Origin: Carnobacteriaceae bacterium zg-C25 | Lineage (GTDB): Bacteria; Bacillota; Bacilli; Lactobacillales; Aerococcaceae | Direction of reading: 5' to 3' | Assembly: GCA_017945845.1 (NCBI GenBank) | Contig: CP072828.1 | Span: 744,001-808,000 of the forward strand | Length of the DNA: 64,000 nucleotides | Shown here: positions 5,264-52,993 of the stretch, one piece after another | Layout of the letters: each line of letters opens with the position of its first letter | Numbering within the stretch: position 1 is the stretch's first letter | Notes under the pieces: model-generated | Seen by the model: the letters and a program-made list of their open reading frames with translations, nothing else | Databases searched by the model: none | Told to the model about the DNA's origin: nothing | Program-made: the position numbers and the translations under genes

Positions 5264-6175
5264 ATGAAAAATAAATCGATTCAAAAATTAACGCTATTTA
5301 CAACGCTGTTATTACTACTTTCGGGATGTGTGTCACGAACAGCAAACGGAGAACCAACCGGTTGGGTGTGGGATTTATTAGGAAAACCAATGGAATCTAT
5401 CATCATTTGGTTTGCACAACTTTTCGGTGGGCAAGCCGGTAGCTACGGATTGGGTATCATCATGGTAACCATTATCGTACGTATAATCATTACACCATTA
5501 AACTTACAAATGACACGTGCTACAACTGAAAACAGTGAAAAAACAACGTATATTAAACCCGCAATGGACGAAATAAATGACCGTTTAAAAAATGCACAAT
5601 CTCTTGAAGAACGTAATGCCGTTCAAATGGAAATGATGGCATTGCAACGTGCAGCCGGCATTAAATTAATTTCAGCAGGTGGTTGTTTACCAATCTTTGT
5701 ACAAATTCCAATTTTCTCTGCATTATATTTTGCGACGATTTCATCAAACGCCATTCGTTCAGATGTCTTCATGGGCATTTCATTAGACGTACCAAGTATG
5801 CTATTAACGATTCTATCGGCAGGTGCGTATTTGATTCAAGGTCTACTCACACAAATTGGTATGACACCTGAACAAAAACAAATGAACCGTACAATGATTT
5901 TGATTACACCAATCATGCAACTTGTGTTTGCATCAAGCGTTCCAGCCGGAGCGGCTTTATATTGGGTAATCGGTGGTATTGTGAGTTGCTTTACAACGTT
6001 ATACACGAATTTAGTACAAAAACCACGTATTAAAGAACAAGTTGCAGAATACATGGCACAAAATCCAATCACATTACCAAAACGTAAAGACATCACACCA
6101 AACAAAACATCTGAAACGGTACCTGCTCCAATCACAAACGGACAACGCCGTAACGAAGGCAAACAAAGACGATAA
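5264..6175 (+). CDS. yidC: YidC/SpoIIIJ-type membrane protein insertase (lipoprotein)
   Basis: A 303-aa Oxa1/YidC-family insertase. The N-terminus is a lipoprotein signal peptide ending in LLSGC, giving lipidated Cys22. Five membrane segments follow, and the hydrophilic-groove arginine of the family is seen in IIVRIIITPLNLQ. The basic C-terminal tail (NGQRRNEGKQRR) suits ribosome binding. It inserts membrane proteins with or without SecYEG. AAGGAAGC precedes the ATG. This is one of usually two YidC paralogues in Lactobacillales; rnpA and rpmH, common neighbours of one paralogue, are absent here. Confidence 0.95.
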   Translation: MKNKSIQKLTLFTTLLLLLSGCVSRTANGEPTGWVWDLLGKPMESIIIWFAQLFGGQAGSYGLGIIMVTIIVRIIITPLNLQMTRATTENSEKTTYIKPAMDEINDRLKNAQSLEERNAVQMEMMALQRAAGIKLISAGGCLPIFVQIPIFSALYFATISSNAIRSDVFMGISLDVPSMLLTILSAGAYLIQGLLTQIGMTPEQKQMNRTMILITPIMQLVFASSVPAGAALYWVIGGIVSCFTTLYTNLVQKPRIKEQVAEYMAQNPITLPKRKDITPNKTSETVPAPITNGQRRNEGKQRR

Positions 6176-6192: not shown

Positions 6193-6219
6193 CGACCGCT
6201 AAATAAACGGTCGTTTTTT
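6193..6219 (+). terminator. intrinsic terminator after yidC
   Basis: Stem CGACCG (6193-6198) with CGGTCG (6208-6213), 9-nt loop, followed by six T. It is a classic rho-independent terminator. Confidence 0.85.
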
Positions 6220-6253
6220 GTCTCTATATCAAATAGAGTTGATAGCTCATAAA

Positions 6254-6289
6254 GGTAGTGATTTAACAGATGTTAAGTCACTATCTTTT
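6254..6289 (+). terminator. 14-bp terminator-like hairpin
   Basis: Arms GGTAGTGATTTAAC (6254-6267) and GTTAAGTCACTATC (6272-6285) pair over 14 bp with two G-U pairs and a 4-nt loop, followed by TTTT. It stands directly in front of the larger cloverleaf element at 6291-6400. It could be a second terminator for yidC or part of a composite repeat. Confidence 0.5.
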
Positions 6290-6290
6290 C

Positions 6291-6400
6291 ATTTTAAGTC
6301 ACAAAGTGATGTACAGCTCACCGAAATGTATGCGATACATTTCTCTTCCCCTACGTTGTGCGGGGAAGGAGCTATTCGTACGTCACTTTTGACTTAAAAT
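6291..6400. repeat. 110-nt cloverleaf-like inverted repeat element
   Basis: The outer arms run from 6291 (ATTTTAAGTCACAAAG, then TGATGTAC) and pair with 6370-6400. The match is nearly complete for about 29 bp apart from small bulges. Inside are two further hairpins: AAATGTAT / ATACATTT (6324-6342, 3-nt loop) and CTTCCCC / GGGGAAG (6345-6368). Together they would fold as a three-way junction on either strand. No coding sequence crosses it. It may be a small mobile repeat of the BOX/MITE kind, a structured RNA, or the left border of the restriction-modification insertion. I do not recognise a named family. Confidence 0.6.
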
Positions 6401-6554
6401 ATTAAGCACCTAGTGAAGAGATGGTACCATATAGAAAAATTGCTTTTTTGTATACATGAAATTATGGTTGGTGGCTTATGCCACCAACCATAAACATTGT
6501 TACACAATCATTTAATTTTAATATACATTTTTTATTTTCTGCTCACATTGTCTA
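6401..6554. other. intergenic stretch with a 13-bp hairpin
   Basis: No gene is seen. The stretch contains a 10-bp palindrome ATGGTACCAT (6421-6430) and a perfect 13-bp hairpin, TATGGTTGGTGGC / GCCACCAACCATA (6463-6492, 4-nt loop), between the res stop codon and the cloverleaf element. The hairpin lacks a U-tract on both strands but may still stop or stabilise the mod-res transcript. Confidence 0.5.
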
Positions 6555-9191
6555 TTAAAGTGCCCGTAATGCTACCTTAATCTCATCCTTACTTACCATC
6601 TCATTGAAAAACGGCAAGCCGACAATGCGATAACGGTCATCATCCACCAGCGTTCTTGCCTCGTCTCGCTCAGAAATTTGACGCAAAAATTCCTGTTTCC
6701 AACCCTCCTTGCCATTCTTGAAAGTGTTATTCGCATCCAAGAATTGACTACCTTTCGGCTCAATGAAAATTTGCCAAGAAACATTGCCAGTCTTCTTATC
6801 ATTGGCAAACAAGAGGAAGTCCGGCTCAAAAGCTTGCCCTTTATCAAAACTGTAAATCCGCACAGCTTTTTCATTTCGAAGCAAGTAAATATCCGTCCAT
6901 TTTTCTTCAAGTTCCGTCATTAAATCCTTCACCAAACGAACGAGAAGTTTTTCTTCACTTGTACCAAAGTTATCATCATAAGCGTACCAGTCCAGATTAT
7001 CCAAGTTTTCGAAATATTGGGTTTCAGCTGAATTTTTTTGCGACACACCAAACTCTGCCTGACTGTTGTGATGAACAGTGTATTTCCGCAAAATATTATC
7101 TTCAAACAAGTCTTTAATTTTATACTGTTCGAATGTTTCTGAACCAAAGAAATGCTCTTCCGTCGCAATCAAATCTTTTTCAATATGATGAAGTAGTTTT
7201 TCCGTGATGTAAAGTTTGTCATCTGGTGTCAAATCATTGACTAAGTGATATTGAGACTCCACTCGCATATCAATATCTGAAAGCATATCGATAAATCCAG
7301 AGACACTCGATAATCCTACAAAAGTCTTTTGAAGATGATCAAAAGAAAACTTTTTGTTGCGATTGATGGCAGTTCTAACAATATGATTGCCGATGATTTC
7401 GCCAAATTTGAAGGTAAGAACTTCTAAACTTTCCGAAACGTAAGTTGCCTCATCAAAAGCCTCAATATCTCGTACGCCATGAGTTAAGAGTTTCACTTCA
7501 AAAGATTTCGGAATGAAATTCGTATCAAACAAACTGCCTTGACGTTGTTCAAGAAATTGTTCATATGAGAGACGTTTGTTCATCCAGACGACGCCATCGG
7601 TGTAAGTTCGCGTCTTTTTGAAAGATTCTTTGAGTTTCAACGTGTGTTCTACTAAATTTTGGTCATCGAAAATACCAGACTCACGCAAAACTTGCTTGAG
7701 CTCTGAAATATAACGAGGATTATTCGCAGAATGATAATGTAATTGCTCGATAACACGGAGTTCGTTATTCTCATTATCGTCAAACTTACGAATATATTTT
7801 TCCTCCAAATTATCACCAATCACAAAAGGATAATAGCGAGCACCACGTCCAATCAACTGTTTCTCGGTGTTGGTGGTTTTTCCGGCAACAAAGCCGTTTT
7901 TTGTCGTTTTACCATCACGAATGTCATAAAGACGGACAATATCAAACAAATTGAGAACGTCCCAACCTTCATTGAGCATATCCACAGCGAAAATCGCACG
8001 GATTTCATTTGCAGGCTGTTCCAAGGTGTTGAGGAGATGAAGACTATCTTTATGCTTATTCTTTCCGTCAACTAAAAGTAGGCGTTCTTTCCGAAAATCC
8101 TCTTGAAGTTCTGCCACTAAATCACTATCTGAAATATCCGCTTTTTCAAAATAAGAGAATGCCTTTTTTAAAATACTGGATTTTTCGTCTATTTCTGAAA
8201 CAAGATTACGCTGTGCTTGAATATCTTCAGGCGTAAGGTTATCCAGCAAACCTAAAAATGCATCCAGATTTTCTTGACTCTCGGCAATTTGCTGTGACTT
8301 GAACATGACCAAAGGTTTTAGGTTGATACCGTTTTTCAGAGCAATTTTCTTACGGTACTGGCTGATAAGGATAGCTTGAAGCATGCGATTGTTCACTTCG
8401 CCATCCACCAAGTGAAAGAGAACGTCTTTCGAATACTTGTCCAGTCGAAATTCTTTCAAGTCGTACTTGAAGAGGAGAGATTTTTCGTACTTTTGTGCCA
8501 ACGTTGGATTGGTCAAGTCAATGGTTGCCGTAAATTCAAAGATACTCGATTTTTTGGAGGTCTTTTGAATCGCTTCAATCGTACTTGTCCAGCTCGTGTT
8601 ATCATCTTTTTCTGACTTGCTCAAACCTGCATTCAAGTGGTGGGCTTCATCCGCCAACATGACGACAGAAATATCCTTAAATTGTTCGTAAGACAAGCGA
8701 TTTTCTCGTGGCGTATTGAGGTCTTGATGCAGTTTCTGAATGGTAGTAAAAACAATATTGATACTGTCATCTCGACTATCTGAAAAATCCGTCACTTCAC
8801 GCACTGTCACGATTTGTCCGTCCATGACAATCTTTTCTGCAAAAAGATATTTTCCAGAAGTACTCTCCAAAAAATTATCCTTGGTTTTCGTCAGAATATT
8901 ATCGTTGTTGACAAAGAAAATAAAGTTTCGCTCGCCTTGATGATACTTTTCCAAAATGACTGACGCCATTAACAGTGTTTTCCCTGAACCAGTCGCCATG
9001 TTGTAGAGGACTTGCTCTGGAATAGCACGATTTTTATCGGTTTTATAGTATAAATACCGTCCAAGTGCTTCCTCTTGGTAAGGTCGTAAAGCATATTTTA
9101 AATTTTTTGTGATGTAGTCAGGTAAATCTGCTCGAAAATTCTTAAAGCCAGACCGACTGACCGTGTCATAGGTTTCGTAAATAAAAGGCAT
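6555..9191 (-). CDS. res: type III restriction enzyme, Res subunit
   Basis: An 878-aa superfamily 2 helicase-nuclease. Walker A is ATGSGKT at residues 66-72 and the DEAH box is ADEAHHL at 181-184. Helicase motif VI (QLIGRGARYYPF) lies mid-protein. A C-terminal PD-(D/E)XK nuclease is seen as EPDFLLF at about 789 and IFIEPKG at about 810. With Mod it cleaves DNA that carries unmodified, inversely oriented recognition sites, after ATP hydrolysis. The ATG lies 3 bases after the mod stop, and its ribosome binding site GGAAAGGA is inside the end of mod. The frame is intact, so the enzyme is probably active. Confidence 0.95.
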   Translation of the reverse strand: MPFIYETYDTVSRSGFKNFRADLPDYITKNLKYALRPYQEEALGRYLYYKTDKNRAIPEQVLYNMATGSGKTLLMASVILEKYHQGERNFIFFVNNDNILTKTKDNFLESTSGKYLFAEKIVMDGQIVTVREVTDFSDSRDDSINIVFTTIQKLHQDLNTPRENRLSYEQFKDISVVMLADEAHHLNAGLSKSEKDDNTSWTSTIEAIQKTSKKSSIFEFTATIDLTNPTLAQKYEKSLLFKYDLKEFRLDKYSKDVLFHLVDGEVNNRMLQAILISQYRKKIALKNGINLKPLVMFKSQQIAESQENLDAFLGLLDNLTPEDIQAQRNLVSEIDEKSSILKKAFSYFEKADISDSDLVAELQEDFRKERLLLVDGKNKHKDSLHLLNTLEQPANEIRAIFAVDMLNEGWDVLNLFDIVRLYDIRDGKTTKNGFVAGKTTNTEKQLIGRGARYYPFVIGDNLEEKYIRKFDDNENNELRVIEQLHYHSANNPRYISELKQVLRESGIFDDQNLVEHTLKLKESFKKTRTYTDGVVWMNKRLSYEQFLEQRQGSLFDTNFIPKSFEVKLLTHGVRDIEAFDEATYVSESLEVLTFKFGEIIGNHIVRTAINRNKKFSFDHLQKTFVGLSSVSGFIDMLSDIDMRVESQYHLVNDLTPDDKLYITEKLLHHIEKDLIATEEHFFGSETFEQYKIKDLFEDNILRKYTVHHNSQAEFGVSQKNSAETQYFENLDNLDWYAYDDNFGTSEEKLLVRLVKDLMTELEEKWTDIYLLRNEKAVRIYSFDKGQAFEPDFLLFANDKKTGNVSWQIFIEPKGSQFLDANNTFKNGKEGWKQEFLRQISERDEARTLVDDDRYRIVGLPFFNEMVSKDEIKVALRAL

Positions 9192-20842: not shown

Positions 20843-21080
20843 CTTTTTTGTGAAGGTTTTAACTAAAAATAATATATTAAAATATTAATTAAATACACAT
20901 ACTTTTTATAAAAAATACGCCCTATAATCGTAATATTTTTCTGTGATTTCATTTTTAAAGTGAACCGTCAACTCTGTTTACATAGACATCATTTTTTCGA
21001 TTTTTCTTTTAAACCATCCATTAAAACCGCCAAAAAATAACTCTATGTTAAATAGGGGTGATGACTGATACCATCAACCC
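20843..21080. other. intergenic region upstream of pplA
   Basis: About 240 AT-rich bases with no gene or structure that I recognise, between the pplA promoter and the dmkB terminator. Confidence 0.5.
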
Positions 21081-21111
21081 TAAAAAATGCCGGTAGATAC
21101 TCTACCGACAT
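21081..21111 (-). terminator. intrinsic terminator after dmkB
   Basis: Stem TGTCGGTAGA / TCTACCGGCA (minus strand, one G-T pair), 3-nt loop, then six T. The plus strand also has seven T after it. Confidence 0.88.
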
Positions 21112-21122
21112 TTTTTTAGACT

Positions 21123-22079
21123 TTAAAATAATTGTTTTAATAACCGTTGCACACTATCAGTTGCCCTGTCATCAAATAATTGATGCACGCGTTTGTTGAA
21201 TCGTGCTAAATACTTTTCCATTAGCGCACGTGTTTTTAAAAGTGCCCCACTACTTTCAAGATGATGTAACAATATTGTCAAATTCTCTATCGACCATTCA
21301 TTATTTTCAGGAACGTATCGACTCCACTCTTCATACGAACCACTATATAATACAGGTGCTGTATAAATACCATTTTGAATATCTTGAAATCTTGGTTTAC
21401 CCGATACATTTTTATCCCATGAATAATCAATTAAATCGTCATGTAACTGAAATGCCATTCCCAATGCAATACCGGCTTGATAGGCATTTCTCAAAGTGGA
21501 TGGTGTTACACCTTCATATAACACACCAGCTTGTGTCGCTAGACCAAATAATTGCGCCGTTTTCCCACGAATTTGTTTTAAATATTGTGTAAGTGTAATG
21601 GTTTTATCGTATTGATGCATCAATTGTCTTAACTCACCCGATAAAACCAATTCTAAAATACGATCATTGCCAAACGATTCAATACCGTCTACATAGCCTT
21701 TTTTGGCTAAACGGGCGCTATAAGCCAATAAATAATCGCCTGCATAAATGGCAATACGATTATCAAATTGCTGATGAAAGGACGGTAAATTACGTCGTGT
21801 ATCCGATCGATCAATCACATCATCGTGAATGAGTGTCGCTAAATGTAAAATTTCAATGCTTGCCGCACGATACAGCGTTTTTTCATTTAAGTGACCGCTC
21901 TGCTCAGCAAACAAAATACATAGCGCAGCACGTATAAATTTGCCCGAAGATAAAATGTACGATTTCACCGTTGCGAGCACATCTGGATGTGTGGGTGTCA
22001 ACTCATTTAACATAATGGATTGTACTTTATTCAATTGTTCTTTTATCGTTGGATGACTATCCCAAATGTGATGAACCAT
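21123..22079 (-). CDS. dmkB: DmkB-like polyprenyl diphosphate synthase
   Basis: A 318-aa trans-polyprenyl synthase with both aspartate motifs: LIHDDVIDRSDTRR (DDxxD plus downstream Arg pair) and QLHDDLIDY. It extends farnesyl diphosphate with isopentenyl diphosphate to the side chain used by DmkA. It is the large-subunit (HepT/IspB) type. Start ATG at 22079 follows AAAGGGTG; a TTG at 22100 would overlap the terminator. A terminator hairpin in its own leader, just after ndh2, means expression depends on read-through or a hidden promoter. Confidence 0.88.
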   Translation of the reverse strand: MVHHIWDSHPTIKEQLNKVQSIMLNELTPTHPDVLATVKSYILSSGKFIRAALCILFAEQSGHLNEKTLYRAASIEILHLATLIHDDVIDRSDTRRNLPSFHQQFDNRIAIYAGDYLLAYSARLAKKGYVDGIESFGNDRILELVLSGELRQLMHQYDKTITLTQYLKQIRGKTAQLFGLATQAGVLYEGVTPSTLRNAYQAGIALGMAFQLHDDLIDYSWDKNVSGKPRFQDIQNGIYTAPVLYSGSYEEWSRYVPENNEWSIENLTILLHHLESSGALLKTRALMEKYLARFNKRVHQLFDDRATDSVQRLLKQLF

Positions 22080-52919: not shown

Positions 52920-52993
52920 CGCATACCTTTTAATGTGTAACAAACTAAAATTAGAGGTGATAACTTATGCCATCACCCCTACACTTGTACCAC

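What the first reader, a model, noticed from the sequence alone, without database searches (positions are those of the whole stretch)
6291..6400. 110-nt cloverleaf-like element at the left border of the restriction cassette
About 29 bp of outer stem with two inner hairpins form a three-way junction that can fold on either strand. It does not belong to any gene and is preceded by another 14-bp hairpin. It may be a non-autonomous mobile repeat, a small RNA or a border used when the mod-res cassette arrived.
Basis: seen in the sequence. Interest (0 to 1): 0.5.

Follow-up and report, generated by a model that had tools for sequence, protein, structure and literature searches.

The report
Deleted insertion sequence with cloverleaf end
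The cloverleaf is one end of a dead jumping gene that has lost its transposase; the same folded end is also carried by an unrelated jumping gene in the same bacterial genus, which hints that the fold itself does something, perhaps stopping stray transcription.

Summary
The fold is real: 6291-6400 gives -51.6 kcal/mol, z -10.4, with a three-way junction. It is not free-standing. It is the noncoding right end of an ISL3-family insertion sequence whose full-length copies lie in a congeneric genome. The window holds an internally deleted copy, about 6220-6509, with both ends and no transposase. So the object itself is ordinary.

Less ordinary: the same cloverleaf (core 71% alike; compensatory stem changes) sits at the left end of an unrelated IS1182-family element of the same genus. 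All 47 model matches lie in one of these two ends. The distant ISL3 and IS1182 relatives that I read lack it. Models find it in 3 of 395 Lactobacillales genomes, all one genus, Granulicatella by the one named match. In both elements it lies inward of a terminator-like hairpin, and its end mostly faces the 3' end of a host gene. My best inference, untested, is an insulator against incoming transcription. A strand test for selection on RNA was inconclusive. A border role for mod-res is not supported.

The parts
5264..6175 (+). yidC-type gene that reads into the right end of the remnant
   Evidence: PF02096, E 6.3e-32
6193..6219 (+). hairpin and T-run after yidC, outside the insertion sequence
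   Evidence: sequence; the scan lists the hairpin (6193-6213) only for the - strand
6220..6247 (-). right terminal inverted repeat of the ISL3 element, decayed by a few bases
   Evidence: 3 mismatches to the 22-base motif of intact right ends; alignment to the intact copy L101
6251..6288 (+). 17-pair terminator-like hairpin of the right end
   Evidence: its counterpart in intact ISL3 copies
6291..6400 (+). the cloverleaf (three-way junction); 79-nt core at 6307-6385
   Evidence: covariance model R2, 96.5 bits; pair counts
6402..6433 (-). remnant of the last codons of the transposase gene, with a 1-nt deletion
   Evidence: alignment to L101 and its reading frame
6434..6435 (.). joint of the internal deletion (element positions 88-1403 are missing)
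6436..6509 (-). left end of the ISL3 element; the stretch 6436-6498 is aligned, the terminus near 6509 is inferred by eye
   Evidence: 89% over 63 bases
6462..6493 (-). 14-pair hairpin of the left end, terminator-like for res
6555..9191 (-). res gene (type III), which reads into the left end of the remnant
   Evidence: PF04851, E 6e-30

Best explanation
Identity (shown, about 0.97): window 6220 to about 6509 is an internally deleted, immobile ISL3-family insertion sequence between the convergent genes yidC and res, and 6291-6400 is the noncoding cloverleaf of its right end. Function (inferred, about 0.4): in the intact elements a terminator-like hairpin followed by the cloverleaf forms an insulator that faces host transcription. 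Transcripts that run past the upstream gene meet the hairpin; any that read on fold the cloverleaf, which would favour termination, 3'-end trimming or cleavage. This shields the element and gives the host gene a workable 3' end. An unrelated IS1182 element of the same genus carries the same module in the same relation to its end, probably through recombination between the two ends. In this genome the transposase of the ISL3 element is gone, and the ends that remain lie mostly just downstream of genes, where their hairpins may serve as terminators.
For: Identity: full-length copies in G002 with an ISL3 transposase, 8-bp target duplication read from L101, both ends aligned in the window at 88% and 89%, left end found independently. 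Shared module: 47 of 47 model matches in ISL3 right ends (20) or IS1182 left ends (27); same order inward from the end, hairpin then cloverleaf, in both. Structure: 92.6% of 773 cells paired, 11 of 31 pairs with two-sided change, slid controls at most 51.0% and 4; outer stems of three different sequences pair. Orientation: of 50 right-end matches, a host gene reads toward 40, away from 5, no gene called in 4, no flank held for 1; IS1182 cloverleaf ends 18 of 21 toward; G002 ISL3 left ends 3 of 15 toward.
Against: No transcript, termination or stability data. G-U against A-C counts do not single out one strand: 28 to 2 in ISL3 copies but 19 to 18 in IS1182 copies, and 8 to 12 by position and type. 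Random intergenic points already face a gene end in 601 of 1000 draws, so the bias is moderate (one-sided p 0.0024, 0.040, 0.011). In ISL3 the inward transcript is antisense to the transposase, in IS1182 sense, so a single regulatory purpose is not obvious. Several remnants have a broken cloverleaf (L002, L003, L005, L022), and two G002 ISL3 copies have lost the hairpin beside it.
Confidence: 0.5

Rival explanations
1. The cloverleaf has no function of its own: it is a long quasi-palindrome that hitchhikes in two insertion sequences, is kept paired by hairpin-templated repair, and passed from one to the other by recombination.
For: A chimera of the two versions exists (L180). Loops are about as conserved as stems: 7 of 17 unpaired against 24 of 62 paired columns invariant. 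Most two-sided changes separate two clades. Several remnants are broken.
Against: Changes on both sides also occur within clades and in the outer stem of G001; hairpin-templated repair could also produce these.
Confidence: 0.3
2. The cloverleaf is a DNA site needed for transposition, such as a structure bound by a transposase or a host factor.
For: It lies near one end of each element and folds well as DNA.
Against: The two transposases belong to different families, and the distant relatives that I read do without it.
Confidence: 0.1
3. The cloverleaf is itself a small mobile element that inserted beside a terminator T-run in an ancestor of each insertion sequence.
For: In both elements it lies just inward of a hairpin and T-run, and distant relatives have the hairpin without it.
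Against: No free copy among 47 matches; no target duplication recognised; two acquisitions at most.
Confidence: 0.08
4. It encodes a small RNA.
For: Stable conserved fold on both strands.
Against: No Rfam family, no promoter recognised on its strand; transcription not tested.
Confidence: 0.05
5. It marks the border used when the mod-res cassette arrived.
For: It lies between yidC and res; in G001 and G002 neither remnant nor cassette is seen within about 1.5 kb after yidC.
Against: No matching end at the far side of the cassette, and ends of the same element lie at many other places.
Confidence: 0.03

Closest known systems
ISL3-family insertion sequences
   Same: Terminal repeats and, in intact relatives, an ISL3 transposase (PF01610, NF033550) and an 8-bp target duplication.
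   Different: The window copy has no transposase and no recognisable target duplication. The cloverleaf is absent from the more distant ISL3 elements that I read (G019, G010, other ISL3 of this genome).
IS1182-family insertion sequences
   Same: The Granulicatella IS1182 element carries the same cloverleaf inward of a terminator-like hairpin. Its copies sit beside host terminator hairpins, which fits the stem-loop targeting reported for IS1272 (PMC5678879, passages).
   Different: Different transposase; the cloverleaf is at the 5' side of the transposase gene, in ISL3 at the 3' side. Four IS1182 relatives at 37-43% identity lack it.
Miniature inverted-repeat elements (MITEs)
   Same: Both ends kept, no transposase, about 290 bp.
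   Different: No second copy with the same internal joint was seen, so it looks like decay, not multiplication.
REP, BOX and similar intergenic palindromic repeats (recalled)
   Same: Structured repeats between genes.
   Different: Here the repeats are recognisable ends of two insertion sequences.

Membership tests
ISL3-family insertion sequence | ISL3 transposase in intact relatives | tested here: met
   PF01610 E 1.9e-54; NF033550 340.1 bits, cutoff 180
ISL3-family insertion sequence | both element ends present in the window copy | tested here: met
   88% and 89% alignments; left end
ISL3-family insertion sequence | 8-bp target duplication | tested here: not met
   present at intact L101; in the window the 8 bases on the two sides differ (read; the left terminus is inferred). 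Hence filed as a remnant
ISL3-family insertion sequence | transposase gene in the window copy | tested here: not met
   only the last codons remain; no transposase of this element in the genome, 3 other ISL3 transposases at 39-40%
MITE | several copies with the same internal structure | tested here: not met
   none seen among matches
Rfam RNA family | match at gathering score | tested here: not met
Cloverleaf module shared with the IS1182 element | same fold with covariation | tested here: met
Transcription insulator | reduces read-through in cells | not testable with these tools
   only a terminator-like hairpin and an orientation bias were obtained

The most novel reading that the evidence does not exclude
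A portable structured RNA module, so far seen only in Granulicatella, has been adopted by two unrelated insertion-sequence families. It sits at whichever end faces incoming host transcription and works with the terminator as an insulator that makes insertion after genes harmless. After the elements died in this reduced genome, their ends were kept as terminators of host genes.
Probability: 0.25. Interest if true: 0.65.

Novelty: new variant of a known kind. Interest (0 to 1): 0.42.

Why it matters
Insertion sequences are usually described by transposase and terminal repeats; their noncoding ends get little attention. A conserved fold shared by two unrelated families in one genus would show that such ends can carry exchangeable working parts. 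If it insulates, it would help explain how these elements settle behind genes without harm and how their remains become host terminators. If it does nothing, the locus is ordinary insertion-sequence debris.

Tried and rejected
Coding: the + strand of several right ends is open across the cloverleaf and some deletions are multiples of three (read), but other copies carry a 2-nt insertion (L054) or a 1-nt deletion (L106) in the core, so coding was dropped. Retention of right ends only was dropped: the own genome also gives 52 left-end matches, palindromic double matches included. Selection on one RNA strand, judged by G-U against A-C cells, was inconclusive. tRNA and other Rfam membership were rejected. 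The viral collection gave no match to the core pattern; plasmids and phages gave none to 6220-6509.

Failed or corrected steps: one search read three IS1182 loci in the wrong orientation; repeated correctly. One search used a faulty pattern and returned nothing; replaced. One search used 35 of the 50 matches; the other 15 were counted afterwards (9 toward, 1 away, 4 without a called gene, 1 without flank). Some of the 50 belong to other ISL3 types with similar ends. Gene calls are mechanical (longest frame of 70 or more codons within at most 1,200 nt, shorter flanks). One search used the 20 of 52 own left-end matches that had loci, 15 G002 left ends and 21 IS1182 left ends with distinct flanks.

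Papers: passages of PMC5678879 and PMC9208149 were seen; all others only as search listings. No listing described this cloverleaf; the library is open access only and I did not read the listed papers.

Full report
Observation. The 110 nt at 6291-6400 fold far better than shuffles: RNA + strand -51.6 kcal/mol, z -10.40; RNA - strand -46.8, z -8.35; DNA + strand -32.1, z -9.79; 0 of 200 shuffles as good each time. The outer stem has 28 pairs with two bulges and leads to two inner hairpins. A 17-pair hairpin precedes it at 6251-6288. At gathering scores Rfam finds only a tRNA elsewhere in the window.

What it is. The window is G000:C1:744001-808000 of a 1,422,407-base genome. With 6280-6410 as query that genome gives 17 alignments, self-match and palindromic double matches included; a longer query gives 61, which also take in a second family. 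In a congener, G002, the same sequence is the right end of full-length insertion sequences with a 436-aa transposase. The transposase is ISL3: PF01610, E 1.9e-54; NF033550, 340.1 bits against a cutoff of 180. The intact copy L101 is flanked by GTAAAAAC on both sides (read). Aligned to L101, window 6214-6433 is the right end (196 of 222 positions, 88%; the last six bases lie beyond the element) and 6436-6498 the left end (56 of 63, 89%); element positions 88-1403 are missing. A separate search with the left end finds the same place. So about 6220-6509 is an internally deleted copy. The hairpin at 6462-6493 is that of the left end. No transposase of this element was found in the genome; the 3 matches are other ISL3 transposases at 39-40% identity.

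Naming. A pattern scan of named genomes gave one match, Granulicatella sp. WM01, on a 32,916-base contig; its length and match position equal those of G001:C55. G000, G001 and G002 share a genus in the tool's classification. I therefore take the organism to be Granulicatella; the species is unknown to me. The scan may leave out the window's own and very near genomes.

A second carrier. The same cloverleaf stands upstream of the transposase gene of a second insertion sequence, with 5 full-length transposase copies in the window's genome. That transposase is IS1182: NF033551, E 1e-102. The cores of the ISL3 and IS1182 versions are on average 71% identical. Read inward from the element end, both show terminal repeat, terminator-like hairpin, T-run, cloverleaf. 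In ISL3 this is the 3' side of the transposase gene, in IS1182 the 5' side. More distant elements lack the cloverleaf: ISL3 in G019 (54% identical transposase), G010 (49-50%) and the other ISL3 of this genome (about 40%); IS1182 in G026, G003, G027 and G038 (37-43%), which keep a left-end hairpin. One G002 locus, L180, joins an IS1182-type left half to an ISL3-type right half.

Distribution. Model R1, built from 13 sequences, hit 3 of 76 genomes of the family (44 matches) and 16 places in the own genome at E up to 1, the last three weak. R2, built from 25 sequences, hit 3 of 395 genomes of the order. Both times these were G000, G001 and G002. I classified all 47 distinct R1 matches by their flanks: 27 follow an IS1182 left end and 20 belong to ISL3 right ends, none to neither. 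Two of the 20 (in L149 and L167) have lost the right-end hairpin, with an end of another element next to the cloverleaf, and one (L160) lacks the transposase side. The large searches used stricter filters and can miss weak copies.

Is the structure conserved? On 25 distinct sequences 92.6% of 773 cells are paired and 11 of 31 pairs have two-sided changes; slid partners give at most 51.0% and 4. None of 500 shuffles reached the observed values for cells paired, pairs or cells with two-sided change and the covariation score, but 315 of 500 did for the number of pair types. On the first 13 sequences the number of pairs with two-sided change was not above shuffles (333 of 500). The outer stem has different sequences in ISL3, in the IS1182 of G000 and G002, and in G001, and pairs in each of the 14 copies checked, more weakly in some. 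Against selection: much of the signal separates two clades, relatedness is not modelled, and quasi-palindrome repair could mimic it. Loops are about as conserved as stems: 7 of 17 unpaired against 24 of 62 paired columns invariant.

Which strand? If an inward-reading RNA were selected, G-U should exceed A-C. ISL3 copies show 28 to 2 cells, IS1182 copies 19 to 18; by position and type it is 8 to 12. Inconclusive.

Position. With mechanical gene calls, a host gene reads toward the ISL3 right end in 31 of 35 junctions, 19 of 21 own and 12 of 14 G002. These 35 are part of the 50 motif matches; of the other 15, 9 are toward, 1 away, 4 have no called gene and 1 no flank. In total 40 of 50 are toward and 5 away. 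Four pairs of neighbouring own junctions share a gene; counted once, 16 of 17 own sites are toward. IS1182 cloverleaf ends: 18 of 21 toward; G002 ISL3 left ends: 3 of 15 toward, 11 away, 1 without a gene. Right against left in G002: Fisher p 0.0018 (12 of 14 against 3 of 14). Random intergenic points in the window are toward in 601 of 1000 draws; against that rate one-sided p is 0.0024 (own right), 0.040 (G002 right) and 0.011 (IS1182). Own left ends are toward in 16 of 20 (p 0.052 against that rate), unlike G002 (Fisher p 0.0013), as if remnants just behind genes were the ones kept; I used 20 of 52 own left-end matches. In the window yidC reads into the right end and res into the left end.

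Mechanism. Shown: an ISL3 remnant, a fold shared with IS1182, its order and its orientation. Inferred: hairpin plus cloverleaf meets transcripts from the upstream gene and limits read-through or settles the new 3' end. Sharing by two transposase families argues against a role tied to one transposase. Context in print: IS1272 is reported to target stem-loops by an inverted-repeat-replacing mechanism (PMC5678879, passages); that it belongs to the IS1182 family is recalled. A survey reports ISL3 over-represented between same-direction genes and names IS1182 among families whose placement suggests a role at gene 3' ends (PMC9208149, passages).

Mod-res. The neighbours are a type III modification subunit (PF01555, PF12564) and a res subunit (PF04851). 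After yidC, G002 and G001 show neither remnant nor cassette in the roughly 1.5 kb held. Nothing found ties the remnant to the arrival of the cassette.

Verdict. The object is ordinary insertion-sequence debris with a real fold. The unexpected part is one conserved cloverleaf at the ends of two unrelated insertion-sequence families in one genus, mostly facing incoming transcription. Interest 0.42.

Noticed in passing
window 21050-21086 and 52946-52981: Two more remnants of ISL3 left-end hairpins, at 84% and 83% identity. The second lies between two gene 3' ends; the first lies behind the 3' end of a - strand frame at 21123.
   Followed up: partly
L180 (G002:C1:210000-211600): A chimera of the IS1182 and ISL3 cloverleafs, followed by another ISL3-type left half: direct sign of recombination between the two ends.
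   Followed up: partly
L126 (G000:C1:590500-593500): An IS1182 left end without transposase between two near-copies of one terminator hairpin; its cloverleaf outer stem has a two-sided change from A-T to C-G against the common version.
   Followed up: partly
L169 and L185 (G002, near 1014573): The IS1182 copy is flanked on both sides by the same whole terminator hairpin of about 35 bases, as if the hairpin were the duplicated target.
   Followed up: no
L124 and L125 (G000, near 301 kb and 1031 kb): Two IS1182 left-end remnants lie in a shared stretch of about 760 bases, 93% identical, that continues into other sequence.
   Followed up: no
L022 (G000, 994373-994521): Nested ends of two ISL3 types stand side by side.
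   Followed up: no
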